Shown here piece after piece: positions 11,295 through 35,573 of a stretch of DNA of 46,406 nucleotides. The translations under genes and the position numbers were made by a program. Location: NCBI RefSeq assembly GCF_000235425.2, contig NZ_KI912266.1:1522000-1568405 (forward strand), read 5' to 3'. This DNA is from Pseudofrankia saprophytica. Its GTDB lineage: Bacteria > Actinomycetota > Actinomycetes > Frankiales > Frankiaceae. The notes beneath the pieces are model-generated. The model ran no database searches and had not been told where the DNA came from. It saw only the letters and a program-made list of their open reading frames with translations. Positions within the stretch are counted from its first letter, which is position 1. Every line of letters begins with the position of its first letter.

Positions 11295-11880
11295 TGCCTG
11301 GCCCGCTCCGTGCGGGCTGTATTGCCTGGTTCGCTCCGTGCGGGCACGGCGCTCTGTTTCTGGTTCGCTCCGTGCGGGCACGGCGCTCCGGCCCCGTGCT
11401 CGCTTCGCTCCCACGGGACCTCCGCGCCGTGTCCTCCTCCGCTCACGTGCGCTGCGGCGACCTCCGCTGCGGCACCCCTACCTCGCTGCGCTCGTAGGGA
11501 TGCCTCCGCGGAGGCGCGCCTCCGCGCCAGCTCGGTTGCGTGCCGCTGTGCCGTCACCAACCGAAACCACAGCGCTCGTATGGCACCTCGCTGCGCTCGT
11601 GGCGGTCTTCGCCACTGTTCAGCCACCTCACGAGCGCAGCGAAGTGGCCTTACGGACGAGCCTGCTCCGGGTGCGTGACGTTCAGCGGTAGGTGACCGTG
11701 CGGCGCGGAGGCGCGCCTCCGCGGAGGCCCGGCCACGGAGCGAAGCGAACGTGGTTGGGCCGCAGCGGAGGTCGCCGGAGCGCCCGTGAGCGGAGGAGGA
11801 CGGCGCGCGGAGGTCCCGTGGGAGCGAAGCGAGTACGGGGCCGGAGCGCGCCGCCCGGACGGAGCGAACCAGAAACACAG
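11295..11880. repeat. Palindromic repeat element A (large inverted repeat)
   Basis: The left arm 11362-11473 and right arm 11759-11870 are both 112 bp and match in inverted orientation at about 90% by eye. Weaker similarity runs inward to GGAGGCGCGCCTCC palindromes at 11510-11523 and 11707-11720. The left edge carries two extra partial copies of the arm end (11295-11317 and 11323-11354). The arms contain hairpins with a near-constant loop (see findings). Reading the reverse complement of element B at about 35 kb gives the same arm order, so A and B are copies in opposite chromosomal orientations. It fills the gap between the GH15 gene and the 118-residue protein. Open frames through it are Arg-rich noise. 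Confidence 0.9.
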
Positions 11881-11896
11881 CTTCTAGCATGGGGGC

Positions 11897-12253
11897 GTGG
11901 CGAAGGTGGAGGTCGCGGGCGGGCGGGTCGAGGTCGTTCTCAGCCAGAAGGAGCGGCTCGCGGCGCTGCGCGGGGATGTGTCGGCGGCGCTCGACGAGAT
12001 CGCCGCCGTGCGTGTCTCGCCGCACCCGTTCGGCGAGCTGCGCGGCATCCGCGCCCCTGGGACGGGGGTGCCGGGGGTGATCGCGATCGGTACCTGGCGA
12101 CACCGCGGCGGCAAGGACTTCGTCGCCATCTATCGCAGACGGCCGGCGGTCGTCGTCGAGCTCGCCGCCGGCAGCGAGTTCGAGCGTTTCATCGTCGGCG
12201 TCGAGGACCCGGATGAGACGGTGGCCAGGATCCAGGCCCGTCACATCAGGTAA
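11897..12253 (+). CDS. Conserved hypothetical protein with PH-like features
   Basis: A 118-residue protein starting at GTG 11897. The pattern (VEVAGGRVEVVLSQKERLAALRGDVSAALDEIAAVRV...GELRGIRAPGTGVPGVIAIGTWRHRGGKDFVAIYRRRPAVVVEL) is that of a small actinobacterial conserved family of unknown function with alternating strands, plausibly a PH-like fold. It has no signal peptide or membrane segment. Its start lies 27 bp beyond the inner end of element A, so its 5' leader is largely repeat-derived. It ends before a DnaA-box-like cluster and a bidirectional terminator. Confidence 0.75.
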   Translation: MAKVEVAGGRVEVVLSQKERLAALRGDVSAALDEIAAVRVSPHPFGELRGIRAPGTGVPGVIAIGTWRHRGGKDFVAIYRRRPAVVVELAAGSEFERFIVGVEDPDETVARIQARHIR

Positions 12254-12292
12254 CCAAGTCGATACTTTGTGCTCCGTTGTTCTGGTGGACCT

Positions 12293-12325
12293 CTATCCAC
12301 ACATGTGGACAACGGTTGTGGATAA
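12293..12325. promoter_or_regulatory. Cluster of three DnaA-box-like sequences
   Basis: Three 9-mers lie in 33 bp: CTATCCACA at 12293-12301 (plus strand, one mismatch to TTATCCACA), TGTGGACAA at 12304-12312 (reverse complement TTGTCCACA, the actinobacterial consensus), and TGTGGATAA at 12317-12325 (reverse complement TTATCCACA, a perfect E. coli-type box). They sit in the spacer downstream of crgA. The block is origin-proximal in related bacteria, so DnaA titration or an accessory site is plausible, but binding is an inference. Confidence 0.6.
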
Positions 12326-12345
12326 ATCTCGGCCGTGCAACTTCA

Positions 12346-12378
12346 CCGGCGCCACGACCTGTGGGGTCGTGGCGCCGG
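12346..12378. terminator. Bidirectional terminator between convergent genes
   Basis: A perfect 14-bp stem (12346-12359 with 12365-12378) closes a 5-nt loop (TGTGG). It lies between the plus-strand 118-residue gene and the minus-strand crgA stop at 12409. Confidence 0.85.
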
Positions 12379-12408
12379 ACGTTTACCGACTTCGGGCGGA
12401 TGGCACGG

Positions 12409-12672
12409 CTAGTGCCACTGAGTGGCCACGCCCAGGCCAATTACCACAAAACCAAATCCAATCAGGATGTTCCAGCCGCCCAACGACTCCATCCCCAGAA
12501 CGCCACCGTTGGAGAAGTAGTACGTCAGCAGGTAGGCGATCCCGATCAGAAAGAACGCAAGGATCATCCCGCCGAACCAGCGCGGCGACGGCGCCCTGCG
12601 CTTCGCGGCGACGGTCGTGCTGGGACGGGCCGAGGTGGACTTCTTCGGCTTGCGACGTCGCGACTCGGGCAC
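12409..12672 (-). CDS. crgA: Cell division protein CrgA
   Basis: An 87-residue small membrane protein. GTG 12672 is chosen because GAGGAG sits 8 nt upstream; a longer frame upstream lacks one. A basic N-terminus (ESRRRKPKKS) is followed by two membrane segments, WFGGMILAFFLIGIAYLLTYYFS and WNILIGFGFVVIGLGVATQWH, with the conserved ILIGFGFVVIGLG signature of CrgA. CrgA acts at the septum, where it interacts with FtsZ and division transpeptidases and tunes Z-ring assembly in Streptomyces and mycobacteria. Its neighbours on the other side form the conserved DUF881/trpG/pknB block. Confidence 0.95.
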   Translation of the reverse strand: MPESRRRKPKKSTSARPSTTVAAKRRAPSPRWFGGMILAFFLIGIAYLLTYYFSNGGVLGMESLGGWNILIGFGFVVIGLGVATQWH

Positions 12673-12859
12673 GGAAGGTTCTCCTCGTCGGGGGCTACAC
12701 AAACACTGCGAGAAGGCTACCCTCCCACCCCCGCCGACTGGCTATGTGAGGGCTTGGCCCTTATCGACGTGTTCCAGGTCCGTCCGGTCGGGCGGCCAGT
12801 CCGCCGGTGCCGGCGGGCAAGGTGGACGCGGCTGTCCCGACCGTAGGAGGGTGGCGCGT

Positions 12860-13657
12860 GTGGGATGGACGGGGCGGCGGGCGCGGCGGCCGCGCCCGCC
12901 GGGTGCCCGCTCACGGCGCGCGCTGGCGGGGATGCTCGGCGCCGTGCTCGCCGGCCTGGTCGTCGCGCTCGCCGCAGGGAGCAGGGACGAGGCCGGCGAC
13001 AGGAGCGCGTCCGCGACCAGCGGTCTGAGCGCCTACGGGAGCGGCCTCGCGGCCGTCGCCGCCGCCGACCAGGCTGGCGTGGACCGAGCGCGCGGCCGGC
13101 TCACCCAGCTACGCGCGAACGGCCCGGACGCGTCGCCCACCGCCGCCGGCCCGACCGGCGCCGCACCCGCGTCGCCAGCCGGCGCGCTGGAACGCGCGGG
13201 CCTGACCGAGGCCCACGGACCCGCGGTGACGGTGACGCTGGACGACACCCCGCGGGAGCGGCGCGCCGGGCCGTGGGACCCCCGGTTCCGGCCGCCGGTC
13301 GCGGACGACCTCGTCGTGCACCAGCAGGACGTGCAGGCGGTGGTCAACGCGCTCTGGGCCGGCGGGGCGCGAGCCATGACGATCATGGGGATACGGGTGA
13401 CCGCGCGCACCGCCGTCCGGTGCGTCGGGAACACGCTGCGGCTGGAGGGTGGCGTCTACGCCCCGCCGTTCGCGATCTCAGCGATCGGCGACCAGGACCG
13501 CCTCGTCGCGGCTCTCGAGGACGACCCCGACGTGGTCCTGTATCGCCAGTACGTCGCCGCCTATGACCTCGGCTACCGCATGGAGAGGGTCGGGAACGCC
13601 ACGTTCCCCGCCGCGGACCTGCCCAGCGCCCACTACGCCACCCCGCTGCCCGGCTAG
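12860..13657 (+). CDS. DUF881 family membrane-anchored protein
   Basis: About 265 residues. GTG 12860 is chosen because AGGAGG ends 9 nt upstream; GTG 12851 in frame abuts that site. A basic N-terminus and one membrane anchor (LAGMLGAVLAGLVVALAAG, about 21-40) are followed by an extracytoplasmic domain with the DUF881 pattern: GPAVTVTLDD, DLVVHQQDVQAVVNALWAGGARAMTIMGIRVT, and GGVYAPPFAISAIGD. The function of DUF881 is unknown. It is conserved next to crgA and trpG/pknB in actinobacteria and is presumed to be envelope- or division-related. It diverges from crgA with a 187-bp gap. Confidence 0.88.
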   Translation: MGWTGRRARRPRPPGARSRRALAGMLGAVLAGLVVALAAGSRDEAGDRSASATSGLSAYGSGLAAVAAADQAGVDRARGRLTQLRANGPDASPTAAGPTGAAPASPAGALERAGLTEAHGPAVTVTLDDTPRERRAGPWDPRFRPPVADDLVVHQQDVQAVVNALWAGGARAMTIMGIRVTARTAVRCVGNTLRLEGGVYAPPFAISAIGDQDRLVAALEDDPDVVLYRQYVAAYDLGYRMERVGNATFPAADLPSAHYATPLPG

Positions 13658-13675
13658 CCAGGCAGCGGGGTGGCG
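13636..13675. terminator. Terminator hairpin overlapping the DUF881 stop codon
   Basis: A perfect 15-bp inverted repeat, 13636-13650 with 13661-13675, has a 10-nt loop that contains the DUF881 stop (13655-13657). The left arm is coding. It lies between convergent ends (trpG ends at 13681) and can work in both directions. Confidence 0.85.
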
Positions 13676-13680
13676 CGGGC

Positions 13681-14331
13681 TCAGGCGAAGGCGGCCTCGC
13701 GGAGGGTCTCCACCTCGGTGGACAGGGCCGGCGCCAGCCGCAGCGCGGCACCGCCGTCACCGCAGGAGTCCAGCCAGCGGGCGAGCATCAGGTGGCCGCC
13801 CTGGGTGAGCACCGACTCGGGGTGGAACTGGACCCCCTCGATCGGCAGCGTCCGGTGCCGCATGGCCATCACCACGCCGCTGTCCGTCCGCGCGGTGACC
13901 TCGATCTCCGCGGGCAGCGTGGACTCCTCCACCGCGAGCGAGTGGTAGCGGGTCGCGATGAACGGGTTCGGCAGGTCCGCGAGCACCCCGGCGCCGTCAT
14001 GGTGGACGACCGAGGTCTTGCCGTGCAGCAGCTCGGGCGCGCGGTCGACGGTCGCGCCGAACGCGACGCCGATCGCCTGGTGCCCCAGGCAGACGCCGAA
14101 CACGGGCAGGCCGGCCGACGCGGCGGCCGTCACCATCGGGATGGTGACGCCGGCCGCCTCCGGCGTGCCGGGACCGGGGGAGAGCAGCACGCCGTCCACC
14201 CCGAGCTCGCCGACGAGCACCGGGTCCACCTCGTCGTTGCGGCGGACCAGGCACTCCGCCTCGAGCTGCCCGAGGTACTGGACGAGGTTGAACACGAACG
14301 AGTCGTAGTTGTCGACGACCAGGATGCGCAC
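13681..14331 (-). CDS. trpG: Anthranilate/aminodeoxychorismate synthase, glutamine amidotransferase subunit
   Basis: A 216-residue class I glutamine amidotransferase. MRILVVDNYDSFVFNLVQYL opens it, LLSPGPGTPEAAG is the oxyanion-side motif, GVCLGHQAIG carries the nucleophilic cysteine, and GVQFHPESVLT carries the His/Glu of the triad. It releases ammonia from glutamine for chorismate amination, for tryptophan (TrpG) or folate (PabA); the partner is not in the window, so the symbol is provisional. The start is 4 bp after the pknB stop on the same strand, so it probably belongs to the fhaA-pknB operon. From memory, the mycobacterial counterpart faces pknB convergently. Confidence 0.93.
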   Translation of the reverse strand: MRILVVDNYDSFVFNLVQYLGQLEAECLVRRNDEVDPVLVGELGVDGVLLSPGPGTPEAAGVTIPMVTAAASAGLPVFGVCLGHQAIGVAFGATVDRAPELLHGKTSVVHHDGAGVLADLPNPFIATRYHSLAVEESTLPAEIEVTARTDSGVVMAMRHRTLPIEGVQFHPESVLTQGGHLMLARWLDSCGDGGAALRLAPALSTEVETLREAAFA

Positions 14332-14335
14332 GTCG

Positions 14336-16438
14336 CTACCCGTTCCCGCCGGCGCCGGTGGTGGGCGCCCCGGTGCCGCCGTCGGGCGTGGTGGGCGGCG
14401 GCGTGGTCGGTGGCTCGCTGGTGGGCGGCTTGGTGGTCGGCTTCACCGTCGGCGAGGCCGTCTCGGTGGGGGCGGTCTGCGCCGCGACGAACAGGGTGAT
14501 CGTGTCGCCGCGGTTGACGGTCGCGTTCTTCGGGCTCTGGTCGAGGACGGTGCCCGCCGGCTGGTCGGCGAGGGCTCGCTCGGTGATCGTGACCCTGAGG
14601 CCGAGCTTCTCCAGCTCCGACTGGGCGGTGCCCGCCTGCTGGCCCGTGTAGTCACCGATGTTGATCTTCGAGCTGACTACGTAGATCGTGATCTTGCTGC
14701 CCTGGGGGGCCGCCTGGCCGCCGGGCGGGTCGGTCTTCTCCACCGTGCCCGCCTTGTGGGTGGCCTGGCCGATGAAGTCCTGGACATCGGGTTGGAAGCC
14801 CGCCTGCGTCAGGATGTTCACCGCGTCGTTCCTGCCCTTGCCGGTCACGTCCGGGATGTCGACCGAGTCCGTCGGGATCGCGACCGTCAGGGTGATCTTC
14901 GCGGTCTTGTCGATCGTGCTGCCCTCGGCCGGGTCGACCTTGGCGACGGGGTTGCTCCCGTCCTTCGGAGCGTCGGCCGTCTTGTTCTGCTCGATCGTGA
15001 TGTTGGTGAAGCCCAGCTCGTTCAGCCGGGCCTCCACCACCTTCTGCGGCTGGCCCTGCAGGCCCTGTGGGATCGTCGCCTGGCCGGTGCTCGCCGTGTC
15101 GCCGTCGTTGCCCTTCTTGTCGCCGAGCAGCGACGTGGCTACCAGCGACACGACGACGAAGGTGAGCACGACCGCGAGCCCGGCGAGGACCCACTTCCAC
15201 GCGTTGGAGCCGCGGCTGGGCTCCGGCCCGGCCGGACCGCCCCCCGCGCCGTAGCGGCCGGGGCCGCTGGGGGCGCCGGCCCGGTCGAACTCGTCGTCGT
15301 AGCGGCCGGGGTAGCCGCCGATCCGCGTGTGCTGGTCGTCGTCGTAGCCGCCGCCGTAGCCCCCGGTCGGGTAGGGACCGGTCTGGTCGTCGTAGCCGGT
15401 GTCGCGGTAGCCCGTCTCGCGGTACCCGGTGTCGCGGTACCCGGTGTCGCCGTAGCGGGGGCCGGTGCCGCCGCGGTAGTCGTCGCCGTAGCCGCCCGGG
15501 GCCAGCTGGGTGGCCGCCGCGGCGCCGGTCCCGCCGCCGGCCGGCCGCGGCGACGGCAGCTGCGCGAAGACCCGCCGGCCGGACAGCGCGCGCTCGAGGT
15601 CGTCACGCATCTCGCCGGCGCTTCCGTACCGGTCGTCCGGCTCCTTCTCCAGCGCCTTGAGCGTCACCGCGTCCGCCGTGGCGGACAGCTGCGGGTTGCG
15701 CCGCGACGGCGGGTCGGGCAGCTCCCGGACGTGCTGGTAGGCGACGGCGACCGGGTTGTCGCCGCGGAACGGCGGCTCGCCGGTGAGCAGCTCGTAGAGC
15801 AGCACGCCGGTCGAGTAGACGTCGCTGCGCGCGTCGACCTTGGCGCCGCGGGCCTGTTCGGGGGAGAGGTACTGCGCGGTGCCGATGACGGCCTGCGTGG
15901 CCGTCATCGTCGACGAGGTCGCGTTGTTGGCCTTGGCGATGCCGAAGTCCATCACCTTGATCGAGCCGTCCGGGCTGAGCATCACGTTCGCCGGCTTGAT
16001 GTCCCGGTGGATGATGCCCAGACGGTGGCTGTAGTCGAGCGCGGCGCAGATGTCGGAGGTGATCTCCATCGCCCGGCGCTCGGGGAACGGCCCCTCCTGC
16101 TGGAGCACCTCGCGCAGCGTGCGTCCCTCGATGAACTCCATCACGATGTACGGCAGATGGACGCCGTTGATGACGTCCTCGCCTGTGTCGTAGGTCGACA
16201 CGATCGCCGGGTGGTTGAGACCGGCGGCGGACTGCGCCTCCCGCTGGAAGCGCTTGAGGAAGTTCGGGTCGCGCGCGAGGTCCGAGCGCAGCACCTTGAC
16301 GGCCACGTCCCGGCCCAGCCGGATGTCGCGGCCGCGGTAGACCTCCGCCATGCCGCCGTAGCCGATGCCGGCGCCCAGCTCGTACCGGCCGCCGATCATG
16401 CGTGGGTCCGTTCCGTACATCTCCGTCACATCAGACAC
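14336..16438 (-). CDS. pknB: Ser/Thr protein kinase PknB with PASTA domains
   Basis: A 700-residue receptor kinase. GTG 16438 is chosen because GAGGGA lies 7 nt upstream inside the end of pknA; the two genes overlap by 8 bp. The kinase domain spans about 14-280: ATP loop GIGYGGMAEVY, K48, HRDIKPAN (D146), DFG 164-166, and a Thr-rich activation loop about 173-181. A disordered juxtamembrane linker with YRDTGYRETG-type repeats follows, then one membrane segment (WVLAGLAVVLTFVVVSLVATSLL). Three extracellular PASTA repeats follow, versus four in mycobacterial PknB. PASTA domains sense muropeptides or lipid II; targets are cell-wall and division proteins. The tail is Pro/Thr-rich. Confidence 0.96.
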   Translation of the reverse strand: MSDVTEMYGTDPRMIGGRYELGAGIGYGGMAEVYRGRDIRLGRDVAVKVLRSDLARDPNFLKRFQREAQSAAGLNHPAIVSTYDTGEDVINGVHLPYIVMEFIEGRTLREVLQQEGPFPERRAMEITSDICAALDYSHRLGIIHRDIKPANVMLSPDGSIKVMDFGIAKANNATSSTMTATQAVIGTAQYLSPEQARGAKVDARSDVYSTGVLLYELLTGEPPFRGDNPVAVAYQHVRELPDPPSRRNPQLSATADAVTLKALEKEPDDRYGSAGEMRDDLERALSGRRVFAQLPSPRPAGGGTGAAAATQLAPGGYGDDYRGGTGPRYGDTGYRDTGYRETGYRDTGYDDQTGPYPTGGYGGGYDDDQHTRIGGYPGRYDDEFDRAGAPSGPGRYGAGGGPAGPEPSRGSNAWKWVLAGLAVVLTFVVVSLVATSLLGDKKGNDGDTASTGQATIPQGLQGQPQKVVEARLNELGFTNITIEQNKTADAPKDGSNPVAKVDPAEGSTIDKTAKITLTVAIPTDSVDIPDVTGKGRNDAVNILTQAGFQPDVQDFIGQATHKAGTVEKTDPPGGQAAPQGSKITIYVVSSKINIGDYTGQQAGTAQSELEKLGLRVTITERALADQPAGTVLDQSPKNATVNRGDTITLFVAAQTAPTETASPTVKPTTKPPTSEPPTTPPPTTPDGGTGAPTTGAGGNG
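15388..15466 (-). repeat. 18-bp tandem coding repeats in the pknB linker
   Basis: Near-identical 18-bp units encode the YRDTG/YRETG repeats between the kinase domain and the membrane segment. Four to five units are visible. Such arrays often vary in copy number between strains; that is inference here. Confidence 0.6.
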
Positions 16439-18155
16439 CAGCGATTCCCTCCCCGACGACGATCCCACCACCACTGGGACCGGTCGTCACCGCCTGTGTG
16501 ACGGAGGCCGCTGCGTGCGAAGAACCGCCCGAGCCGGCGAGGGAGCGGGTGATGAGCGCGGTGACAGCCACTGTGAGCAACAGCAGCACGATCAGCACCG
16601 GCAGGGTCAGCCGGCGCCGGCGCCTGCCCGCCGCGCCGGCCCGGCGGTTGGCCGCCCGGCCGCCCGCTGCCCGGCCGCCCGGCTGCCAGCCGCCCGGCTC
16701 GGCGTCCTCGGCGTCGGCCGCGGGATGCGCCGCGGCGAGCCCGGTCTCGGCGAGCTGATCGTCGGCTTCGCCCGGCGGCCAGGAGCCGCCGGCGGTCGGC
16801 TGGTAAGCCGTCGGGGACGGCTGGTAGGCGGAGTGTCCTGGCTGCTCCTGCTGGTAGCCGGCCGGCGCGGCGGCGGGCTGGTAGCCGCTGGCGCCCTGCT
16901 GATAGCCGGTCCCGCCGCGCTGGTAGCCGCCGCCCGGCTGATAGGCCGTCGCGCCCGGCTGGCCGGCGGCGGCACCCGGCTGATAACCCGTCGCACCTGG
17001 CTGGTAACCCGTCGCGCCCGGCTGGTAGGCGGTGGCCCCCGGCTGGGGTGCCCCCGCCGGGCTGGGGGTGCCTCGCCCGGTGCCACCCGCACCGGCGTAG
17101 CCGGGCCGTGCGCCAGGGTAGGCCGCTCCCGGGCCTCCGGCGGGGCCGTCGGCGACCCAGGAGGGCGCCCTGTTCCGGCCGCGCGGCGGCGGTCCGGAGG
17201 GGGCGGGGTGCCGCGCCGTCAGGTCGGGGCTCACGCCGGCGCCGGAGGCCCAGCGCGGCTCGGAGGCGAACAGCTCGCGGCGGATGCCGGCGGCGCTGCG
17301 CGCGAACGCGCCGGCCGACGACGGCCGGCGGGCCGGGTTCTTCGCCATCGCCTGCTCGACCAGCGAGCGCACCTGGTACGGCACGTCCGCCGGCAGCGGC
17401 GGCGGGGTGTCCTGCTGGTGCGCCATGACGACGACGATCGGGTTGCGGTCGTCGAACGGCCGGCGCCCGGCCAGGCACTCGTAGGCGACGACGCCCAGCG
17501 AGTACACGTCGCTGGCCGGGGTGACCGGGCGCCCGGACGCCTGCTCGGGCGAGACGTAGTACGCCGTGCCCATCATGATCCCGGTCGCGGTCAGCGGGGC
17601 CGCGTCGACGGCCCGCGCGATGCCGAAGTCGGTGACCTTGACCACGCCGTCGGGGCGGATCAGCAGGTTGCCCGGCTTGATGTCCCGGTGCACGATGTTG
17701 AGCGCGTGCGCGGCCTCCAGCGCGTCCGCCGACTGGCCGAGGACGTCGAGCATCCGCTCGGGCGAGAGCCGTTTCTCCCGGTGCAGCACCGCCGACAGCG
17801 GCTCGCCCTCGACGAGCTCCATCACCAGGTAGGCCGTCGGGTGGTCGTCGACCGTCGCCACCTCGCCGTAGTCGTAGACGGAGGCGATGCCCGGATGCGA
17901 GAGCCGGGCGGCATGGCGGGCCTCGCCGCGGAAGCGGACGAGGAAGGACTCGTCGCTGGCGTACTCCGGGCGCAGCAGCTTGACCGCGACCGGGCGGCCG
18001 AGGGTCTGGTCGACGCCCCGCCACACCTCGCCCATGCCGCCGGTGGCGATCCGGCCGTCGAGGCGGTAGCGGTTGTCGAGAACGGTGTTCGGCGGAACGG
18101 CTCCGGCGAACGGCTGGGCTGGCTGGTGGGCGGGCTGACCCGACGGGTTGTTCAT
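16431..18155 (-). CDS. pknA: Ser/Thr protein kinase PknA
   Basis: A 574-residue membrane kinase. ATG 18155 overlaps the pbpA stop as ATGA. Residues about 29-290 form the kinase domain: GRIATGGMGEVW, K59, HRDIKPGN (D158), DFG 176-178, and a Thr-containing activation loop. A long linker of degenerate YQPGATG repeats (about 390-480) follows. A basic stretch, one membrane segment (LPVLIVLLLLTVAVTALI) and only about 40 extracytoplasmic residues end the protein, without PASTA domains. PknA works with PknB to control growth, septation and cell shape. It sits between pbpA and pknB in the overlapping operon, the conserved arrangement. Confidence 0.95.
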   Translation of the reverse strand: MNNPSGQPAHQPAQPFAGAVPPNTVLDNRYRLDGRIATGGMGEVWRGVDQTLGRPVAVKLLRPEYASDESFLVRFRGEARHAARLSHPGIASVYDYGEVATVDDHPTAYLVMELVEGEPLSAVLHREKRLSPERMLDVLGQSADALEAAHALNIVHRDIKPGNLLIRPDGVVKVTDFGIARAVDAAPLTATGIMMGTAYYVSPEQASGRPVTPASDVYSLGVVAYECLAGRRPFDDRNPIVVVMAHQQDTPPPLPADVPYQVRSLVEQAMAKNPARRPSSAGAFARSAAGIRRELFASEPRWASGAGVSPDLTARHPAPSGPPPRGRNRAPSWVADGPAGGPGAAYPGARPGYAGAGGTGRGTPSPAGAPQPGATAYQPGATGYQPGATGYQPGAAAGQPGATAYQPGGGYQRGGTGYQQGASGYQPAAAPAGYQQEQPGHSAYQPSPTAYQPTAGGSWPPGEADDQLAETGLAAAHPAADAEDAEPGGWQPGGRAAGGRAANRRAGAAGRRRRRLTLPVLIVLLLLTVAVTALITRSLAGSGGSSHAAASVTQAVTTGPSGGGIVVGEGIAGV

Positions 18156-23250: not shown

Positions 23251-23256
23251 CAGGCT

Positions 23257-25417: not shown

Positions 25418-25439
25418 CGCGATCGGCTCAATCTTGTTC

Positions 25440-28187: not shown

Positions 28188-28250
28188 GCCACCCGACGCG
28201 GGACAGCGCGGGCAACCGCCGCCAGGGAACGCCCTCGCGGGAACGCCTTC

Positions 28251-28270
28251 GCGGCGGGCCGGCCCGCCGC
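28251..28270. terminator. Perfect 20-bp palindrome between convergent genes
   Basis: A 20-bp perfect palindrome of GCGGCGGGCC and its complement touches the rhodanese stop codon (28270-28272) and lies downstream of the TetR gene. It probably acts as a shared terminator. A 14-nt unit (GGGAACGCC...CGCG) is repeated just before it. Confidence 0.6.
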
Positions 28271-28653: not shown

Positions 28654-28798
28654 GCCATCCTCGCATTCCGAGACGGCGATCCGGCGACTGGGGCCCGCCG
28701 TCGGCGCGGTGGCCGGCCTGGCCCCGGGACCCGGAAGTGCCTCCGGCCGGCACCGGGAAGTGCCTCCGATCATGGCCAGAGGTGGCTCCGGCCCGCGG

Positions 28799-29677
28799 CT
28801 ACTTGAGCAGGCGGGACAGGCGGCGGTCAGCGAGGATCCGGCCGCCCGTCTGGCAGGTGGGGCAGTACTGCAGGCTCCGGTCCGCGAAGGCGACCTGACG
28901 CACGGTGTCGCCGCAGCGCGGGCAGGCCTGTCCGGTGCGGCCGTGGACAGCCAGGTTCGCCTTCTTCTCCGCCTTCAGGTCCGCGGCGCCCAGGCCGCCG
29001 GCCGCGTCGACGGCGGCGCGCAGCACCCCGACCACCGCGGCATGCAGCGCCGCGACCTGCTCGGCGCCGAGACCGCTCGCGGGCGCGAACGGCGAGAGCC
29101 TCGCCGCCCACAGCGTCTCGTCGGAATATGCGTTACCCACCCCGGCGAGCACCGACTGGTCGGTGAGCACCCCCTTTATCTGGGCCCGCCCGGCGGCCGC
29201 GAGCAGCCCCGCGAGCGCCTCGACGGTGAACGCGTCGTCGAAGGGGTCGATCCCGAGCCTCGCGACGCCTGGCACCTCGGCCGGGTCGCGCACCAGGTAG
29301 ACGGCTAGCCGTTTCTGGGTGCCCGCCTCCGTCAGGTCGAAGCCGGACCCGTCGGTGAACACCAGCCGGAACGCGAGCCCCCCTCGGCCGGCGCGTCCCG
29401 GCGCGGCCGGCTGGCTGTCCTTCCAGCGCAGCCAGCCGGCTCTGGACAGATGGGTGACCAGGTCGAGCCGCTCGCCGCCCGCCGCGGCGAAGACCAGGTC
29501 CAGGAACTTCCCGTGCCGGGTGGCGTCGACCAATGCCGCGTCCACCAGGTCACCGGGCCCCGGAGAGACGGTGCGCAGCGCGTTGATCGCGACCGGCTCC
29601 GCCCGCGCGACCACCTTGCCGACCGCGCGCTCTCTCAGGACCGACGCAAGCGCTTCCATCTCCGGTAGCTCCGGCAT
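28799..29677 (-). CDS. Formamidopyrimidine-DNA glycosylase / endonuclease VIII family
   Basis: 292 residues from ATG 29677. It begins MPELPEMEAL, with the Pro nucleophile and Glu exposed after Met removal. Further features are RHGKFLDLVF (the DNA-binding lysine), THLSRAGWLRW, GIDPFDDAFT, the H2TH region (KGVLTDQSVLAGVGNAYSDETLWAARLSP), and a C-terminal zinc finger CPRC...CPTC followed by a short tail. It excises oxidised bases and cuts the abasic strand. Fpg versus Nei specificity cannot be settled by eye, so no symbol is given. It diverges from a small zinc-ribbon gene across 37 bp. Confidence 0.93.
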   Translation of the reverse strand: MPELPEMEALASVLRERAVGKVVARAEPVAINALRTVSPGPGDLVDAALVDATRHGKFLDLVFAAAGGERLDLVTHLSRAGWLRWKDSQPAAPGRAGRGGLAFRLVFTDGSGFDLTEAGTQKRLAVYLVRDPAEVPGVARLGIDPFDDAFTVEALAGLLAAAGRAQIKGVLTDQSVLAGVGNAYSDETLWAARLSPFAPASGLGAEQVAALHAAVVGVLRAAVDAAGGLGAADLKAEKKANLAVHGRTGQACPRCGDTVRQVAFADRSLQYCPTCQTGGRILADRRLSRLLK

Positions 29678-29714
29678 GTGCCCAGTGTCTCCTACCGCAT
29701 GCGATCGTGGAGGC

Positions 29715-29927
29715 ATGACAACTGGCGGTTCTGTCCACGACGGCCAGACCGACGGCCCGTGGCTGACCTGCCCCTGGTGTTCCGGGATCGTCCCGCTGGC
29801 TCACCTCGTTCCCTCCGACGAGGAGCCGGGAGCCGCGGTCGCCGTCTGCGACGACTGCGGTCGCCGTGTCTCGTTCCTCCCCCCCGACGACCCCGACAGG
29901 TCGTCGCCCGGGGTGTCGGCTAGCTGA
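29715..29927 (+). CDS. Small zinc-ribbon protein
   Basis: 70 residues from ATG 29715, with GGAGG very close upstream. It has two cysteine pairs, CPWC and CDDC, about 30 residues apart, the layout of a zinc ribbon. The function is unknown. It lies divergent from the DNA glycosylase with only 37 bp between starts, so the two promoters must overlap. It could be missed by annotation because of its size; I judge it probable. Confidence 0.6.
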   Translation: MTTGGSVHDGQTDGPWLTCPWCSGIVPLAHLVPSDEEPGAAVAVCDDCGRRVSFLPPDDPDRSSPGVSAS

Positions 29928-30091
29928 ACGCGGGGGGCGGGGAACCGGGGTGATGGGGCAGACTGCGGCTGGTGGGTCGCGCCAGGTCGCGCGGTGCTCA
30001 CTGGCTGGCGGCATGGCGGGACGGAAGCGAGAGCGGGCGGGACAACGGCGAGGGTGACCGGGGTCATCGGGCCAGGAGACCGGGGGCGCGG

Positions 30092-31909
30092 GTGACGGAG
30101 GACGTGGCGGGCGCGGCGCGACGCCCGGCCTCCGGTGTGCCAGGCGAGCCGCTCGCCGCGCACGACCCCCGCCGGATCGGTCCGTACGCCCTGCTCAGCC
30201 GGCTCGGAACCGGCGGGATGGGAACGGTCTACCTCGGGCGGGGGCCAGCCGGCCGGCTGGTCGCCGTGAAGGTCATCCGGCCCGACCTGGCCGCGGACGA
30301 GGAGTTCCGCCGCCGCTTCCGCCAGGAGGTGGCCGCCGCCCGCCGGGTCGCCCCGTTCTGCACCGCCGAGGTGCTCGACGCCGACCCCGACGCGTCCGCG
30401 CCATACCTGGTGACCGAGTTCATCGACGGCCTGCGCCTGGACCAGGCGATCGCCAGAGGTGGCCCGCTCACGTCGTCGACGCTGACCGGTCTCGCGGTCG
30501 GGGTGGCCACCGCGCTCACCGCGATCCACCGGGCCGGGCTGATCCACCGTGACCTCAAGCCGAGCAACGTGCTGCTCTCGCTGTCCGGGCCCCGGGTCAT
30601 CGACTTCGGCATCGCCCAGGCCGTGGCCGCGGACAGCAAGGCCAAACCGACGTCCTGGGGGTTCGGCTCCGCCGGCTGGATGGCGCCCGAACAGATCAAC
30701 GGGCAGCCGATCGGGCCGGCCGCGGACGTGTTCACCTGGGGCATCCTCATGGCCTACGCCGGTACCGGCCGGCACCCCTTCGGTGAGGGGCAGGACATCG
30801 ACCTCGCCTACCGGACCGTCTCGGCCGAGCCCGACCTGATCGGCCTCGCGCCGCCGCTGTACGGCCTGGTCGCCGCGGCGCTCACGAAGGACCCCGACGG
30901 CCGGCCCAGCGCTCGCGACCTGCTGCTCGCCCTGGTCGAGACGGGCCCGAGCGGCGGCGCGGGCCTCGCCCCGGGGGAGGAGCTGCTCGGGCTCGCCGCG
31001 GATCGGGCGGACGTGATGGCCGGCCCCGTCGTGGCGGCGCTGACCGGCCCCGACCAGCACGGCCCAGGCCAGCAAGGACCGGACCAGGGCGGCGTGGGCC
31101 GGGCCGGAGGGCTGCCCAGGACGAGGGTCGCGCCGCCCGGCTACGGCGCCGCCGGTCACGGTCCTGCGGGTCAGCGCCCACCGGGGGCCCGGGAAGCGGG
31201 GCAGGGGCAGGCCGCACCCAACCGAGGCCAGGCCGCCGCCTACCCCGGAGCTTCCGGGGGGATCGTGTCGCCGCGGCGGCCGTCGACCCCCGTCGGGGGC
31301 GAACGGCACTGGCCCGGGGGCGGCCCACCAGGCGGAGGGCCGGGCGGTCCGCCGCCTGCCCGGCGTCGCGGGCCGGGCAACCGCGGCAGCCGCGTCGGGC
31401 TCTGGCTCACCGTCCTGCTGCTCGTCCTGGGAGCGGCGGCGATCGCCGCGATCGCGCTGAACCCGGGCACGTCCAGCGACGTCGGCTCCGGTTCGTCCGG
31501 GACGTCGGCGACGCCGGCGACGCCGACGCCCACCGAGCGGGTCTACCGCGACGGTTCGCTGGAGTTCACCATCAAGGACGTGCGCTGCGGCGTGACCGAG
31601 ATCGGTGTGATCATCAAGAAGCATCCGGACGGGCAGTACTGCCTGGTCAAGGTGAGCGTCCACAACGCCGGGAACACCGCGCGTGGCCTGGTCGCCAACC
31701 AGCAGTTCATGTTCGACCAGAACGGCGGCAAGCACGAGGCCTACTCCAGCTCCCGCTGGTACTTCCCGTTGGAGAGCCTCTGGAACTCGGTCAAGCCGGA
31801 CGGAGAAGTCAGCGGCACGCTCGTGTTCGACATCCCGTCGGTGGCCCATCCGTCACGTCTCGAGCTGCACGACGGACTCCTCGGCGACGGCGTGACCATC
31901 CAGCTCTGA
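30092..31909 (+). CDS. Transmembrane Ser/Thr kinase with an extracellular DUF4352-like domain
   Basis: About 605 residues from GTG 30092 (CCAGGAGA upstream, rather far). The kinase domain spans about 30-290: GTGGMGTVYLG, K60, HRDLKPSN (D154), IDFGIAQ, GWMAPEQ. A Pro/Gly-rich linker is followed by one membrane segment (LWLTVLLLVLGAAAIAAIAL). The extracytoplasmic domain (about 480-605: LEFTIKDVRCGVTEIG, YCLVKVSVHNAGNTARGLVANQQFMFDQNG) resembles DUF4352, an immunoglobulin-like fold. This gives a receptor layout with a sensor quite unlike PASTA. It is not linked to the pknA/pknB operon. Ligand and targets are unknown. Confidence 0.9.
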   Translation: MTEDVAGAARRPASGVPGEPLAAHDPRRIGPYALLSRLGTGGMGTVYLGRGPAGRLVAVKVIRPDLAADEEFRRRFRQEVAAARRVAPFCTAEVLDADPDASAPYLVTEFIDGLRLDQAIARGGPLTSSTLTGLAVGVATALTAIHRAGLIHRDLKPSNVLLSLSGPRVIDFGIAQAVAADSKAKPTSWGFGSAGWMAPEQINGQPIGPAADVFTWGILMAYAGTGRHPFGEGQDIDLAYRTVSAEPDLIGLAPPLYGLVAAALTKDPDGRPSARDLLLALVETGPSGGAGLAPGEELLGLAADRADVMAGPVVAALTGPDQHGPGQQGPDQGGVGRAGGLPRTRVAPPGYGAAGHGPAGQRPPGAREAGQGQAAPNRGQAAAYPGASGGIVSPRRPSTPVGGERHWPGGGPPGGGPGGPPPARRRGPGNRGSRVGLWLTVLLLVLGAAAIAAIALNPGTSSDVGSGSSGTSATPATPTPTERVYRDGSLEFTIKDVRCGVTEIGVIIKKHPDGQYCLVKVSVHNAGNTARGLVANQQFMFDQNGGKHEAYSSSRWYFPLESLWNSVKPDGEVSGTLVFDIPSVAHPSRLELHDGLLGDGVTIQL

Positions 31910-31963
31910 CGCCGATCCGGTCGGCGCCGGCCGGCGAGCGAGCGCGGTCGTTAGGCTCAGGGA

Positions 31964-33394
31964 GTGTCAGATGGTGCGCCTGCTTCTTCGCTGGTTGTCG
32001 GGTTCGACCTGGACCTGACGCTGTTGGACGCGCGCCGCGGCATCGCGGCGACATACGTGGAGCTCTCGGCGCGTACCGGCGTCCCGGTCGACAGCGCGCT
32101 GGCCGTCAGCCGGCTGGGCCCGCCGCTGGAGGAGGAGCTCGCGAACTGGTTCCCGCCCGGCGAGATCGCGGCGGTCGCCGCGCTGTACCGCGAGCTGTAC
32201 GCGGTGCACGCGATCCCGGTGTCCGAGCGGATGCCCGGCGCCGTGGAGGCCATCGAGGCGGTGCGCCGCGAGGGTGGCCGGGTGGTCGTGGTCACCGCGA
32301 AGAACGAGCCGCAGGCCCGTGCCAGCCTCGCGGCGATCGGCATCGAGCCGGACGTCGTCGTCGGCAACCGTTACGCCAGCACCAAGGGTGACGCGATCCG
32401 CGAACTCGGCGTCGAGATCTTCGTCGGCGACCACGAGGGCGACATGATCGGGGCCCGTGCCGGTGGCGCCCTCGCCGTCGGGCTGACCACCGGGCCGCAC
32501 GACGCGGCGGCCCTCGCCGCCGCGGGCGCCGACGTGGTCCTGGGCGCGCTCGCCGCGTTTCCCGACTGGCTGGCCGACACCGTGCTCGACCGGCGGGGCG
32601 CGGCCCTGTCCGCGAGGCTGACCGACCTCGGCTCGGTGCTCGTCGCCTTCTCCGGCGGCGCCGACTCCGCCTTCCTGCTCGCGTGGGCGGTGCGCACGCT
32701 CGGTCCGGACGCCGTCGTCGCGGCGACAGCCGTCTCGCCGTCGCTGCCGGCGGCGGAGCTCGCCGGGGCGCGCGCGCTCGCCGGCGACCTGGGCGTGCGC
32801 CACGTGCTGCCCGCGACCGACGAGCAGTCCCGGCCCGGCTACCGGGCGAACGGCGCCGACCGGTGCTACTTCTGCAAGGCGGAGCTCACCGAGACTCTCC
32901 TGCCGTTCGCGGCCGAGCTGGGCCTCGCGCACGTCGTCACCGGGACCAACGCCGACGACGCCGTCGCCGGGTTCCGTCCCGGCATCCGGGCGGCGGCCGA
33001 GCGCGGGGCCGCCACCCCGCTGCTCGACGCCGGCCTCACGAAGCGCCAGGTGCGGGCCGCCTCGCGCCGGCTGGGCCTCGTCACCGCCGACAAGCCGGCC
33101 GCCGCCTGCCTCGCCAGCCGGATCGCCTACGGCATCGAGGTGACCCCCAGCCGGCTCGCCCGCGTCGAGCAGGCGGAGGGGGCGCTTCGGCTCGCGCTGG
33201 CGGGAGCCGGGCTGGACTACAGCGACCTGCGGGTGCGGGACCTGGGTGACCGGGCGCGCATCGAGGTGGACGCCGGGCTGGTGACGACCCTCGCCGACCG
33301 GCCGGACCTGGTCGCCGTCGTGGAGGGCTTCCCCGCCGTCGAGGTCGACCCGCGTGGCTTCCGCTCCGGCTCCATGAACGAGCTGCTGTCCTGA
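31964..33394 (+). CDS. larE: HAD hydrolase fused to LarE (sulfur transferase for the nickel-pincer cofactor)
   Basis: 476 residues from GTG 31964, one uninterrupted frame. Residues about 1-205 are a HAD phosphatase: nucleophile D15LDLT, T111, K141, and D156/D160. Residues about 212-476 are LarE: PP-loop SGGADS 230-235, then C301YFC304K, TGTNADDAVAGFRPG, C382 in AACLASRIAYG, and the closing GFRSGSMNELL. LarE adenylates the pyridinium biscarboxylate nucleotide from LarB and inserts sulfur. C382 aligns with the sacrificial cysteine of the Lactiplantibacillus enzyme; having C301 and C304 as well fits the three-cysteine, [4Fe-4S]-type LarE. The HAD domain may act on a nucleotide by-product (inference). 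larB and larC lie 8 kb downstream on the same strand. Confidence 0.92.
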   Translation: MSDGAPASSLVVGFDLDLTLLDARRGIAATYVELSARTGVPVDSALAVSRLGPPLEEELANWFPPGEIAAVAALYRELYAVHAIPVSERMPGAVEAIEAVRREGGRVVVVTAKNEPQARASLAAIGIEPDVVVGNRYASTKGDAIRELGVEIFVGDHEGDMIGARAGGALAVGLTTGPHDAAALAAAGADVVLGALAAFPDWLADTVLDRRGAALSARLTDLGSVLVAFSGGADSAFLLAWAVRTLGPDAVVAATAVSPSLPAAELAGARALAGDLGVRHVLPATDEQSRPGYRANGADRCYFCKAELTETLLPFAAELGLAHVVTGTNADDAVAGFRPGIRAAAERGAATPLLDAGLTKRQVRAASRRLGLVTADKPAAACLASRIAYGIEVTPSRLARVEQAEGALRLALAGAGLDYSDLRVRDLGDRARIEVDAGLVTTLADRPDLVAVVEGFPAVEVDPRGFRSGSMNELLS

Positions 33395-33457
33395 CCGCTG
33401 ACTTTCGGCTGTCGGCTGTCGACCGCTGACTGGCGCGGATGAATTCCTGCGCCTGAC

Positions 33458-33565
33458 GGGCGCGCGCCCTATAGCCTGATGACCGTCGTTGGCTGGTCGA
33501 GCCGCCCCGGTCGCCCGGGGCGAAGGCCGGCGAAGGCGCGGCCGGGTACAGGTGGCCGCGCCTTC
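33458..33565 (+). promoter_or_regulatory. Candidate promoter and structured leader of the cold-shock gene
   Basis: A 12-bp palindrome GGGCGCGCGCCC (33458-33469) abuts TATAGC (33470-33475), a plausible -10 element. Further down, a perfect 12-bp stem (33532-33543 with 33554-33565, 10-nt loop) followed by TTTGG resembles a terminator 44 nt before the GTG of the cold-shock gene. A long structured 5' leader fits known temperature-responsive control of csp genes, but the function here is inferred. Confidence 0.5.
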
Positions 33566-33609
33566 TTTGGCCCTGTTCCATCCCGTCGTGTCACAGAACG
33601 AGGTCGCCC

Positions 33610-34005
33610 GTGCCCACCGGCAAGGTCAAGTGGTATGACGTCGACAAGGGATTTGGTTTCCTTAGCCGCGACGACGGCGGCGACGTGTTCGTCCACAAGG
33701 CGGCGCTTCCGCCCGGTGTCGAGAAGCTCCGCGCGGGCGACCGCGTCGAGTTCGGCGTCGCCGCCGGCCGCAAGGGCGACCAGGCCCTGTCCGTCCGGGT
33801 GCTCGCGGCGCCCCCGTCGGTGGCGAAGGCGGCGGCACAGGCCGCCCGGCGCAGCCCCGACGAGCTGCACAGCATGGTCGAAGACATGATCAAGATGCTC
33901 GACGAGGTCCAGCGGGACCTGCGACGCGGCCGCTACCCCGACCGCCGCGCCGCCCAGCGCGTCGCCAAGGTCGTCCACGCCGTCGCCAGCGAGCTCGAAG
34001 TCTAG
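33610..34005 (+). CDS. Cold-shock domain protein with a C-terminal extension
   Basis: 131 residues from GTG 33610 with GAGG 7 nt upstream. The cold-shock domain occupies about 1-66: [19 protein letters not shown] (RNP1) and DVFVHKAAL (RNP2). It binds single-stranded RNA or DNA. A helical, Arg-rich extension of about 65 residues follows ([50 protein letters not shown]). A cold-shock/DUF3027/futalosine-gene neighbourhood recurs in actinobacteria as far as I recall. A 19-nt stretch containing its stop codon is duplicated immediately downstream. Confidence 0.93.
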
Positions 34006-34033
34006 GGCTGGCGTTCGAAGTCCAGGGCTGGCG
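33995..34033. repeat. Tandem duplication of the cold-shock gene 3' end
   Basis: A 19-bp unit (33995-34013) recurs at 34015-34033 with one mismatch and a 20-bp period. Copy one includes the last codons and stop of the cold-shock gene; copy two is untranslated and lies just before the convergent mqnD stop. Confidence 0.8.
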
Positions 34034-34035
34034 GT

Positions 34036-34968
34036 TCAGCGCAGGGCGGTGGGAAGGCGGGGGACGAGGCCCTCGGCGGCGGCCCGTCCGAGGAGCTCCT
34101 CGACGGCGGCGTAGCCCTCGTCACCGAGATCGAGGCTGAAGTCGTTGACGTAGAGGTTGATGTGCGCCTGGACGACCTCGGGCGCCATCTCCTGGGAATG
34201 CGCCAGCACCCAGCCCGCGGACGCCGCCCGGTCGGTGAAGGCGGCCGCGACGCTGGTCCGCACGGCGACGCCGAGGTCGCCGACGGCGGCGGGCAGATCC
34301 CGGCGGGCGAGGATCGCGCCGAGCGGGATCGGCAGGCCGGTGGCTCCCTCCCACCAGTCACCGAGGTCGGCCACCGACACCAGCCCGTAGGACGGGTAGG
34401 TGAACCGGGACTCGTGGATCACCAGGCCCGCGTCGTAGCGGCCGTCGCGGACCGCGGGCATGATCTGGTCGAACGGGAGCACGTCGACCGAGGCCACGTC
34501 GACGCCGGCGGCCCAGAGCCGGAACAGCAGATACGCCGTGGTGCGGGTGCCGGGGATGGCCACCCTGGCGCCGCGCAGGACTCCCGGGCCGGCCGTGCCC
34601 GTCGCCCGCTCATCCACCTGGGCGGCGTCAGGGCCGCCGCCGGGCGCGCGGCCGGCGGCCATCAGGACCAGCGGGCCGCAGCCGCGGCCGAGCGCGCCGC
34701 CTGACGGCAGGAGCCGGTAGCCGTCGAGCAGCCACGGCAGCGCGGCGTAGGACACCTTCACCAGGTCGTCCAGGCCCTCGGCCGCCCGCGCGTTGAGCAC
34801 GTCGATGTCGGCGAACGTCACCGACACCGGCGGCATCCCCGCCACCAGGCCATGCGCCAGCGCATGGAACGCGAAGGTGTCGTTCGGGCACGGCGAGATA
34901 GCCAGACTCAGCGGCGCCACACCCCCGGGCGCGGCGGTCGGCCTGGGCTGGGTCAGCTCGGTTGCCAT
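34036..34968 (-). CDS. mqnD: 1,4-dihydroxy-6-naphthoate synthase MqnD (futalosine menaquinone pathway)
   Basis: 310 residues if it starts at ATG 34968; GTG 34920 is an in-frame alternative. The MqnD pattern is clear: LAISPCPNDTFAFHALAHG near the N-terminus, VTFADIDVLNARA, LDDLVKVSYAALPWLL, GARVAIPGTRTTAYLLFRLW, DAGLVIHESRFTYPSYGL, and GLPIPLGAILARRDL. It converts cyclic de-hypoxanthine futalosine to 1,4-dihydroxy-6-naphthoate, a menaquinone precursor. The ATG directly abuts the end of repeat element B and no Shine-Dalgarno sequence lies at normal spacing; the closest GGAG is about 18 nt away inside the repeat. mqnB lies upstream on the same strand beyond the repeat. Confidence 0.93.
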   Translation of the reverse strand: MATELTQPRPTAAPGGVAPLSLAISPCPNDTFAFHALAHGLVAGMPPVSVTFADIDVLNARAAEGLDDLVKVSYAALPWLLDGYRLLPSGGALGRGCGPLVLMAAGRAPGGGPDAAQVDERATGTAGPGVLRGARVAIPGTRTTAYLLFRLWAAGVDVASVDVLPFDQIMPAVRDGRYDAGLVIHESRFTYPSYGLVSVADLGDWWEGATGLPIPLGAILARRDLPAAVGDLGVAVRTSVAAAFTDRAASAGWVLAHSQEMAPEVVQAHINLYVNDFSLDLGDEGYAAVEELLGRAAAEGLVPRLPTALR

Positions 34969-35573
34969 GCTGTGTATTTTGGTTCGCTCCGTGCGGGCGG
35001 CGCGCTCCGGCCCCTTCCTTGCTTCGCTGCGGAAGGGACCTCCGCGCGCCGTCCTCCTCCGCTCACGTGCGCTGCGGCGACCTCCGCTGCGGCCCAACCA
35101 CTTCGCTTCGCTCGTGGTCGGGCCTCCGCGGAGGCGCGCCTCCGCGCCGTACGGTCACCCGCCGTTGATCGTCACCAACCCGAAACGGCTGTGCTCCCAG
35201 GGCCACGTCGCTTCGCTCGTGGGTCGGGTCTCCGCGGAGGCGCGCCTCCGCGCCGCACGGTCACCCGCCGTTGATCGTCACCAACCCGAACGGCTGTGCT
35301 CCCAGGGCCACGTTCGCTTCGCTCGTGGGTGGCTCCCGCAAGGATCTGCTCCAGATCGGGCCCCGATCTTGGACTAGCGCCGGTCAAGCGGGTCGCAACC
35401 GAGCTGGCGCGGAGGCGCGCCTCGCGGAGGCCCGACCCACGAGCGAAGCGAAGTGGGCCGGGCCGCAGCGAGGTCGCCGGAGCGCACGTTCGCGGAGGAG
35501 GACACGGCGCGGAGGTCCCGTGGGAGCGAAGCGAGTACGGGGCCGGAGCGCCGTGCCCGCACGGAGCGAACCA
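34969..35573. repeat. Palindromic repeat element B (large inverted repeat)
   Basis: The left arm 34981-35093 and right arm 35462-35572 are inverted copies of one another and of the arms of element A. The left arm of B matches the right arm of A (shared GCTGTGT edge, GCGCGC and ACGGTCACC inner end). The right arm of B matches the left arm of A (inner end CCAGCTCGGTTGCG). B is therefore A in reverse orientation. B also holds a tandem duplication of about 105 bp in its centre. It fills the whole gap between mqnB, whose stop is 4 bp away, and mqnD. Confidence 0.9.
35101..35330. repeat. 105-bp tandem duplication inside element B
   Basis: The segment beginning TTCGCTTCGCTCGTGG at about 35102 and ending GGGCCACG at 35207 is repeated from 35208 to about 35312 with only a few differences. 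A third partial copy starts at about 35313. Each copy contains the GGAGGCGCGCCTCC palindrome and the shared ACGGTCACCCGCCGTTGATC stretch. Element A has one diverged copy of this segment. Confidence 0.85.

What the first reader, a model, noticed from the sequence alone, without database searches (positions are those of the whole stretch)
11393..35541. Hairpin modules with a constant TCGCTTCGCTC loop and covarying stems
Inside both elements the same loop, TCGCT(T/G)CGCTC or its complement, is flanked by stems whose sequence changes in compensating fashion: CCCGTG/CACGGG (11393-11417), CCCTAC/GTAGGG (11476-11499), CCACG/CGTGG (11733-11754), CCCGT/ACGGG (11815-11839), CCCTTCC/GGAAGGG (35012-35037), ACCAC/GTGGT (35097-35118), CCAC/GTGG (35203-35222 and 35308-35328), CCCAC/GTGGG (35436-35457), CCCGT/ACGGG (35517-35541). 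A conserved loop with covarying stems suggests the hairpin itself is kept, as RNA or as extruded DNA, and may be recognised by a protein or RNA.
Basis: seen in the sequence. Interest (0 to 1): 0.85.

Follow-up and report, generated by a model that had tools for sequence, protein, structure and literature searches.

The report
Mobile hairpin repeats in Pseudofrankia
Dozens of gaps between genes in the soil bacterium Pseudofrankia hold copies of a non-coding repeat whose hairpin stems change letters on both sides at once while the main hairpin loop stays the same, so the folded shape itself seems to be what is kept.

Summary
Both window elements (11294-11881, 34979-35575) are inverted pairs of a ~170-nt unit that folds into two branched stem-loops, both carrying the loop word TCGCT(T/G)CGCT. 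The family has about 70 copies in this genome and was found in 7 of 8 genomes of its genus (Pseudofrankia) and in 0 of 27 other genomes of its family. Across 143 units, stems A, B and C vary, yet 97% of scored cells stay Watson-Crick; in a 28-unit test 24 of 37 pairs show two-sided changes (0 of 500 shuffles reach this). Loop C hardly varies. Copies in the same gene gap of different species show it too: 151 two-sided pair changes against 51 that break a pair. One site is empty in one species and holds a 46-nt perfect palindrome, 579 nt or a ~790-nt insert in others. This is a modular, REPIN/BOX-like mobile repeat, but no Y1 (REP-type) transposase was found in the seven carriers. My reading: the folded single strand is the substrate of an unidentified mobiliser. 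A 3'-UTR RNA role and stem copying by template switching are not excluded; RNA versus DNA is undecided.

The parts
11294..11881 (.). Element 1: inverted pair of ~170-nt units with a ~170-nt middle; lies between the stop codon (11291-11293) of a GH15/trehalase-like gene and the next open frame (11897)
11294..11379 (+). Three successive copies of the 5' end (TGG[TC][TC]CGCTCCGTGCGGGC), the last one belonging to the full left unit
   Evidence: family D1
11361..11530 (+). Element 1 left unit, helix-A type ACG
11376..11434 (+). Domain 1 of that unit: GGGC+ACGGCGC (11376-11386) pairs with GCGCCGT+GTCC (11424-11434); inner hairpin 11393-11417
11449..11527 (+). Domain 2 of that unit: long imperfect hairpin with inner stem CCCTAC/GTAGGG and loop CTCGCTGCGCTC (11476-11499)
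11584..11646 (.). Middle of element 1: two extra loop words in opposite orientation (arms 11584-11601 and 11629-11646)
11700..11871 (-). Element 1 right unit, helix-A type GGC; hairpins 11733-11754 and 11815-11839
34979..35575 (.). Element 2: inverted pair filling the gap between the stop codon of a futalosine hydrolase gene (35577-36476, -) and the likely start (34968) of a PF02621 menaquinone-biosynthesis gene
34980..35150 (+). Element 2 left unit, helix-A type GGC; RNA fold of 34980-35149 -95.7 kcal/mol, z -3.84
34995..35054 (+). Domain 1 of element 2 left unit; hairpin CCCTTCC/GGAAGGG 35012-35037
35069..35147 (+). Domain 2 of element 2 left unit; hairpin 35097-35118
35203..35328 (+). Extra tandem domain-2-like modules (spacing 105-106 nt), hairpins 35203-35222 and 35308-35328
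35404..35573 (-). Element 2 right unit, helix-A type ACG; hairpins 35436-35457 and 35517-35541

Best explanation
The two elements belong to a modular, mobile repeat family of Pseudofrankia without coding function. SHOWN: a ~170-nt unit with a near-invariant 5' end (TGGTTCGCTCCGT(C/G)CGGGC) and two stem-loop domains; stems that vary by compensated two-sided changes; loop words that stay constant; units found alone, with extra tandem modules, or as inverted pairs; 5' ends a few bases after stop codons in most sense cases; presence, absence and different sizes at orthologous sites. INFERRED: the state under selection is the single strand folded unit by unit (not the long arm-to-arm hairpin), and it is the recognition substrate of a trans-acting mobiliser that reads the loop and the 5' end rather than stem sequence, as TnpA-REP proteins read loop and flank of ssDNA hairpins. 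Stems then drift as long as they pair; template switching between arms during replication probably supplies many paired changes in one step. The mobiliser is unknown; no Y1 (RAYT/IS200) transposase was found.
For: Covariation with 0 of 500 shuffles; the four highest APC-corrected scores, all base pairs, are 26-42 times the sd over all column pairs. Each helix's two arms are tied (normalised MI 0.73-0.97) while different helices assort almost freely (0.04-0.25; A with B 0.19-0.21), although B lies between the arms of A. Copies in the same gene gap: 151 two-sided Watson-Crick changes, 51 that break a pair, C loop changed at 9 of 462 positions, over 42 comparisons whose flanks were verified. Loop orientation kept. 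18-mer 5' end 72 times in G000, 0 for the reversed control. Both window sites lack the element in 5 of 7 other genomes and hold different forms in the two nearest. At six further G000 sites G005 carries element sequence of other sizes in 6 of 6, among them a 46-nt perfect palindrome and a 14-nt remnant. In 72 of 82 ends that follow a gene in sense, a stop codon starts 3-13 nt before the unit. Inverted-pair partners share the helix-A type in only 3 of 31 pairs against 11.6 expected (12 of 20000 re-pairings as low), so arm-to-arm pairing is not what is maintained. Loop dependence of TnpA-REP: passages of PMC8266576.
Against: No mobiliser gene was found: Y1 transposase (PF01797) gave no match in 7 carriers, Y2 gave nothing but its control genomes were silent too, and no copy with a gene inside was noticed among those read (by eye, no systematic scan). 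The free energy of the whole element favours the long arm-to-arm hairpin (-461.6 kcal/mol, z -21.5). The different A helices may simply be inherited from a founder with two different ends. No target-site duplication could be defined. Of the units alone, 76 of 83 had no right end within 900 nt, unlike a two-ended transposon. Some high-scoring column pairs are not consistent base pairs (50-64 and 129-150, 41% canonical). Orthologue comparisons within a group share changes and are not independent events.
Confidence: 0.45

Rival explanations
1. Host-useful structured RNA: the unit is transcribed as the 3' end of the upstream gene and blocks exonucleases, stops transcription or separates genes in an operon; covariation is ordinary RNA selection.
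For: The 5' end follows stop codons closely (72 of 82 sense ends; no random-position control was run); sense outnumbers antisense 82 to 52 and 46 to 29 among units alone that could be classified; one gene gap is occupied in 6 species; RNA fold z -3.84 against DNA -2.59; an almost constant G-U pair extends helix A (26 of 28).
Against: 52 of 134 ends are antisense to the neighbouring gene; no G-U excess among half-pairs (32 against 57 A-C; 18 against 25 in orthologues); presence and size vary greatly between close species; the stop codon is sometimes supplied by the element end itself; no transcription data.
Confidence: 0.25
2. No selection on the fold: template switching between the arms of quasi-palindromes copies each change to the other arm.
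For: Few intermediates (WC 4937, GU 32, AC 57, other 70 cells); a perfect 46-nt palindrome in G005 carries the same unusual end variant in both arms; one reversed loop inside a perfect stem (L084). The process and its loop-inversion signature are described in PMC8794818 (passages).
Against: Loop C (diversity 0.032) is much less variable than its stem (0.260) or the tail (0.468); loop orientation is nearly always kept; mismatched internal loops (TNC/TCC, both domains) persist inside the helices instead of being healed.
Confidence: 0.15
3. A classical MITE: terminal inverted repeats are cut as double-stranded DNA by the transposase of an insertion sequence in the same genome; the internal hairpins are passengers.
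For: Near-invariant inverted ends (diversity 0.040), insertion variation, variable interior, no gene noticed inside the copies read.
Against: 76 of 83 units alone had no right end within 900 nt; no target duplication seen; internal loops are as conserved as the ends; no insertion sequence with these ends was noticed, but insertion sequences were not searched for beyond Y1 and Y2 families.
Confidence: 0.12
4. Whole hairpins are exchanged as blocks between copies by gene conversion, giving linked arms.
For: Copies are similar and numerous; modules are gained and lost in place; helix A and B types are associated slightly above shuffles.
Against: Nested helix A and helix B assort almost freely although B lies inside A, while the arms of each are tied.
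Confidence: 0.03

Closest known systems
REPINs / BIMEs (REP doublets with RAYT, TnpA-REP)
   Same: Extragenic repeats in many copies; inverted pairs of a hairpin unit plus lone units; compensatory stem changes noted for REPINs (PMC3116915, passages); loop important for the transposase in one system (PMC8266576, passages).
   Different: Unit ~170 nt in two branched domains, not 20-40 nt; no GTAG tag at the 5' end; no Y1 transposase found in 7 of 7 carriers; inverted partners differ at the outer helix.
BOX elements of Streptococcus
   Same: Composite repeat with end modules and a variable number of internal modules, predicted stem-loop folds, spread through the genome in the past (PMC3049150, passages).
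   Different: Here the ends of a full element are inverted copies of one large GC-rich unit, and several hairpins share one loop word on freely covarying stems.
MITEs
   Same: No coding function, inverted ends, strong fold, insertion variation.
   Different: No target duplication shown, mostly no right end on units alone, no partner insertion sequence known, not AT-rich (MITE features as in the PMC3049150 passages).
Repetitive hairpin-forming elements of mitochondria
   Same: Dispersed hairpin repeats in intergenic regions (PMC2800124, passages).
   Different: There stems are conserved and loops vary; here stems vary and loops are conserved.

Membership tests
REPIN/RAYT | Y1 (RAYT/IS200-type) transposase in the genome | tested here: not met
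   PF01797 at E 0.001: 0 of 7 carrier genomes, 1 of 1 non-carrier of the genus
REPIN/RAYT | GTAG or CGTC tag beside a 20-40 nt palindrome | tested here: not met
   By reading the aligned units: the near-invariant 5' end is TGGTTCGCTCCGT(C/G)CGGG before a ~170-nt two-domain unit; no separate tag search. Tag definition from title and abstract of PMC3733652 in a listing and the PMC8266576 passages
REPIN/RAYT | Inverted pairs of the unit that can form a hairpin | tested here: met
   31 inverted pairs among 143 units; fold of element 2 z -21.5
BOX elements | Variable number of internal modules between end modules | tested here: met
BOX elements | Sequence homology to boxA/boxB/boxC | not tested
   No BOX sequence was compared
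MITE | Terminal inverted repeats at both ends | tested here: inconclusive
   Present in paired elements, but 76 of 83 units alone had no right end within 900 nt
MITE | Target-site duplication | tested here: inconclusive
   Filled and emptier sites compared; no constant duplication seen, flanks too diverged
Known RNA family (Rfam 15) | Match at gathering score | tested here: not met
   0 matches in the window
Integron attC | R/L boxes and integron integrase | not tested
   Considered only

The most novel reading that the evidence does not exclude
A new class of mobile element whose unit of selection is a branched hairpin fold: an unknown Pseudofrankia protein or RNA recognises the constant TCGCTTCGCTC loop and the 5' end on a folded single strand, stems are free to drift because only pairing counts, and the two ends of full elements carry different (orthogonal) outer helices so that each end folds by itself instead of with its partner.
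Probability: 0.25. Interest if true: 0.8.

Novelty: new variant of a known kind. Interest (0 to 1): 0.6.

Why it matters
Stem covariation is normally read as proof of a functional RNA. This family shows the same signature in a mobile DNA repeat, also between copies in the same gene gap of close species, with many copies, traceable site histories and nested helices that assort almost freely. It is a good natural test of how much covariation comes from selection on a fold and how much from arm-to-arm copying during replication. If a loop-reading mobiliser exists, it would be a new system for moving folded single-stranded DNA without a Y1 transposase.

Tried and rejected
Known RNA: the Rfam gathering scan of the window gave 0 matches. 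Plasmids and phages: no blastn match to element 2. RAYT as mobiliser: rejected. Y2 transposase: uninformative, controls silent. Reverse transcriptases (PF00078): in 7 of 7 carriers and not in the one non-carrier; with one smaller, fragmented negative genome this is only a lead. Block exchange as sole cause: rejected. Arm-to-arm pairing as the maintained structure: inverted partners are less alike than random partners (own 0.852, re-paired mean 0.873, 2000 of 2000 re-pairings at least as alike). Strand test by G-U against A-C: no decision. Possible autonomous copies: a 1-kb copy at G000:C1:2703084-2704129 holds tandem modules, and the pair around 6421212-6422729 flanks a stretch that I take for a host gene (by eye). 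Neighbour orientation by ORF length alone was too crude and was replaced by GC phase. Gene-flanking copies 3.3-3.4 kb apart in three genomes are separate elements in one operon (gene names by eye).

Rows dropped: 212 profile hits, 145 full-length, 143 after removing rows with N; 28 diverse units, 4 of them from the window, for pair count and model. Ends: 223 distinct, 166 kept, 134 classified. The pair list has 36 pairs; pair 127-152 (89% Watson-Crick), which is in the 37, was left out. One search counted 44 orthologue comparisons (157 two-sided, 56 pair-breaking, C loop 11 of 484); re-checked flanks, kept 42 in 14 groups and gave the figures used here. Copies were gathered by BLAST and nhmmer, which favours well-kept ones. 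In one search at most 80 candidates per genome were scored, so its counts are lower bounds.
Full report
What is there. The window comes from a 9.98-Mb genome (G000). The records with many copies of the same 5' end in a public scan are Pseudofrankia sp. BMG5.36, P. asymbiotica, 'Frankia nepalensis' CN7 and Frankia sp. AgB1.9, so the genus is Pseudofrankia, Frankiaceae; that G000 is strain CN3 is recalled from genome size only. Each element is an inverted pair of one ~170-nt unit (longest ungapped arm pairs 82-91% complementary).

The family. A 210-base piece of element 1 gave 71 matches in the own genome, and the 18-mer 5' end occurs 72 times (0 for the reversed control). A search with element 2's left unit matched 7 of 8 genomes of the genus and 0 of 33 others. 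A covariance model built from 28 units matched the same 7 of 8 and 0 of 27 other genomes of the family, with 73 matches among 80 scored candidates in G000. Plasmids and phages gave nothing, Rfam nothing at gathering, and 11 records with a stray 18-mer have no unit.

The fold. In 143 full units the strongest associations are base pairs: 48-66 (TA 84, GC 51, CG 5), 34-80 (GC 74, CG 65), 33-81 (CG 80, GC 58), 132-147 (AT 95, CG 27). The next two, 50-64 and 129-150, covary but are canonical in only 41%, at helix ends where the alignment is uncertain. The pairs define domain 1 (helix A of 7 bp, extended by GGGC/GTCC; a two-pair step; helix B with the loop) and domain 2 (helices E, D and C with the same loop word). 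Both domains share a mismatched TNC/TCC internal loop between GC and GG/CC steps. On 28 diverse units: 92.3% of cells paired, 24 of 37 pairs with two-sided change, covariation score 0.286 against 0.090 shuffled, 0 of 500; slid controls 39-61% paired. Over 143 units and 36 pairs, 4937 of 5096 scored cells are Watson-Crick.

What varies and what does not. Mean diversity per column: stem A 0.249, stem B 0.201, inner stem C 0.260, loop B 0.094, loop C 0.032, 5' end 0.040, tail 0.468; stems D and E are mostly constant, 0.050. The C loop is normal in 142 of 143 units and the B loop in 115 of 143; 27 others have a replaced or altered B loop and one is reversed. The arms of each helix are tied (normalised mutual information 0.73-0.97), while helices assort almost freely (0.04-0.25; A with B slightly above shuffles), although B lies inside A. 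Exchange of whole hairpins therefore cannot be the main cause.

In place. Many units sit in the same gene gap in two to six species. In 42 comparisons (14 groups) whose flank next to the unit was verified there are 151 two-sided Watson-Crick changes, 51 changes that leave one copy unpaired (25 A-C, 18 G-U, 8 other), and 9 changes in 462 C-loop positions (44 comparisons before that check gave 157, 56 and 11 of 484). Comparisons within a group are not independent, and some changes could be replacement by another copy rather than mutation in place.

Mobility and modularity. Both window sites lack the element in G001, G002, G003, G004 and G007. At site 2, G006 has a ~110-nt single hairpin and G005 a ~145-nt form; at site 1, G005 has only a right half and G006 a longer element. 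At six further G000 sites, G005 holds element sequence in 6 of 6 but of other sizes, including a perfect 46-nt palindrome and a 14-nt remnant. At the palindrome site G000 has 579 nt, G006 a ~790-nt insert and G004 none. The palindrome has the same unusual end variant in both arms, which suggests arm-to-arm copying. Tandem internal modules, alternative loops and partial repeated ends are common.

Position. Of 223 distinct ends, 166 were kept and 134 classified: 82 follow a gene in sense, 52 lie against a gene in antisense; in 72 of the 82 a stop codon starts 3-13 nt before the unit (no control positions were run). The stop is sometimes supplied by the element end itself (site d). In the window, element 1 follows the stop of a GH15/trehalase-like gene, and element 2 fills the gap between a futalosine hydrolase gene and a PF02621 menaquinone gene.

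Two different ends. In 31 inverted pairs the helix-A type agrees in only 3, where 11.6 are expected (12 of 20000 re-pairings as low); B, C and D show no such rule. Either a founder had two different ends, or identical outer helices are selected against because they would pair with each other. Both window elements follow the rule. The long arm-to-arm hairpin is by far the most stable fold on paper, but it is not the pairing that evolution keeps.

How it works. Best reading: a mobile repeat whose folded single strand is a recognition substrate; pairing and loop matter, stem letters do not. ssDNA-hairpin transposases read their targets in part this way (PMC8266576, passages; REPIN compensatory changes, PMC3116915, passages). 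No Y1 transposase was found in the carriers, so the mobiliser would be new or unrelated. Template switching (PMC8794818, passages) probably contributes to the one-step paired changes, yet conserved loops and persistent internal mismatches argue that it is not the whole story. An RNA role after stop codons remains the main alternative; the G-U test does not decide (32 G-U, 57 A-C; but an almost constant G-U pair in helix A).

Literature. Eight searches of the open library listed no description of this repeat in titles or abstract starts; only one held paper has both 'Pseudofrankia' and 'repeats', and I saw it only in the listing (PMC11323853). Most subscription papers are not in this library. 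BOX elements are the nearest modular analogue (PMC3049150, passages); mitochondrial hairpin repeats show the opposite pattern, with conserved stems and variable loops (PMC2800124, passages).

Noticed in passing
L084:1542-1711 (G004), domain 1: The B loop with its closing stem is reverse-complemented in place inside an intact outer structure, the only such case in 143 units; a footprint expected of template switching or hairpin inversion.
   Followed up: yes
L208, L212, L163, L034 (domain 1) and L019 (tail): The loop is replaced by a ~40-nt hairpin cassette (...CCTCCGAAATCGGCTTCGCCGATTCCGCAGGGACCCCG...) at the same point in several elements; its 3' end plus loop start has 9 exact copies in G000.
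   Followed up: partly
G000-G007: RVT_1 reverse transcriptases occur in all 7 carrier genomes and not in the one Pseudofrankia genome that lacks the repeat; may be chance or genome size.
   Followed up: partly
G006 and G000 loci, outside many unit ends: A second conserved extension (GGGCGGGAAGGTTGTTGC before TGGTTCGC, and its complement after right ends) marks a subset of copies; the element may be longer there.
   Followed up: no
window 11294-11379; also L002, L015, L174: Partial copies of the 5' end stacked head to tail, as if new copies enter just inside an older copy's end.
   Followed up: no
L083 and L078 (G004 units at C387:69007 and C295:13060): Short tandem arrays directly after the unit (containing CCGGGGGCCCAGTTACGTCGTC, and GCAGTCCCAGCGTCAGGG).
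   Followed up: no
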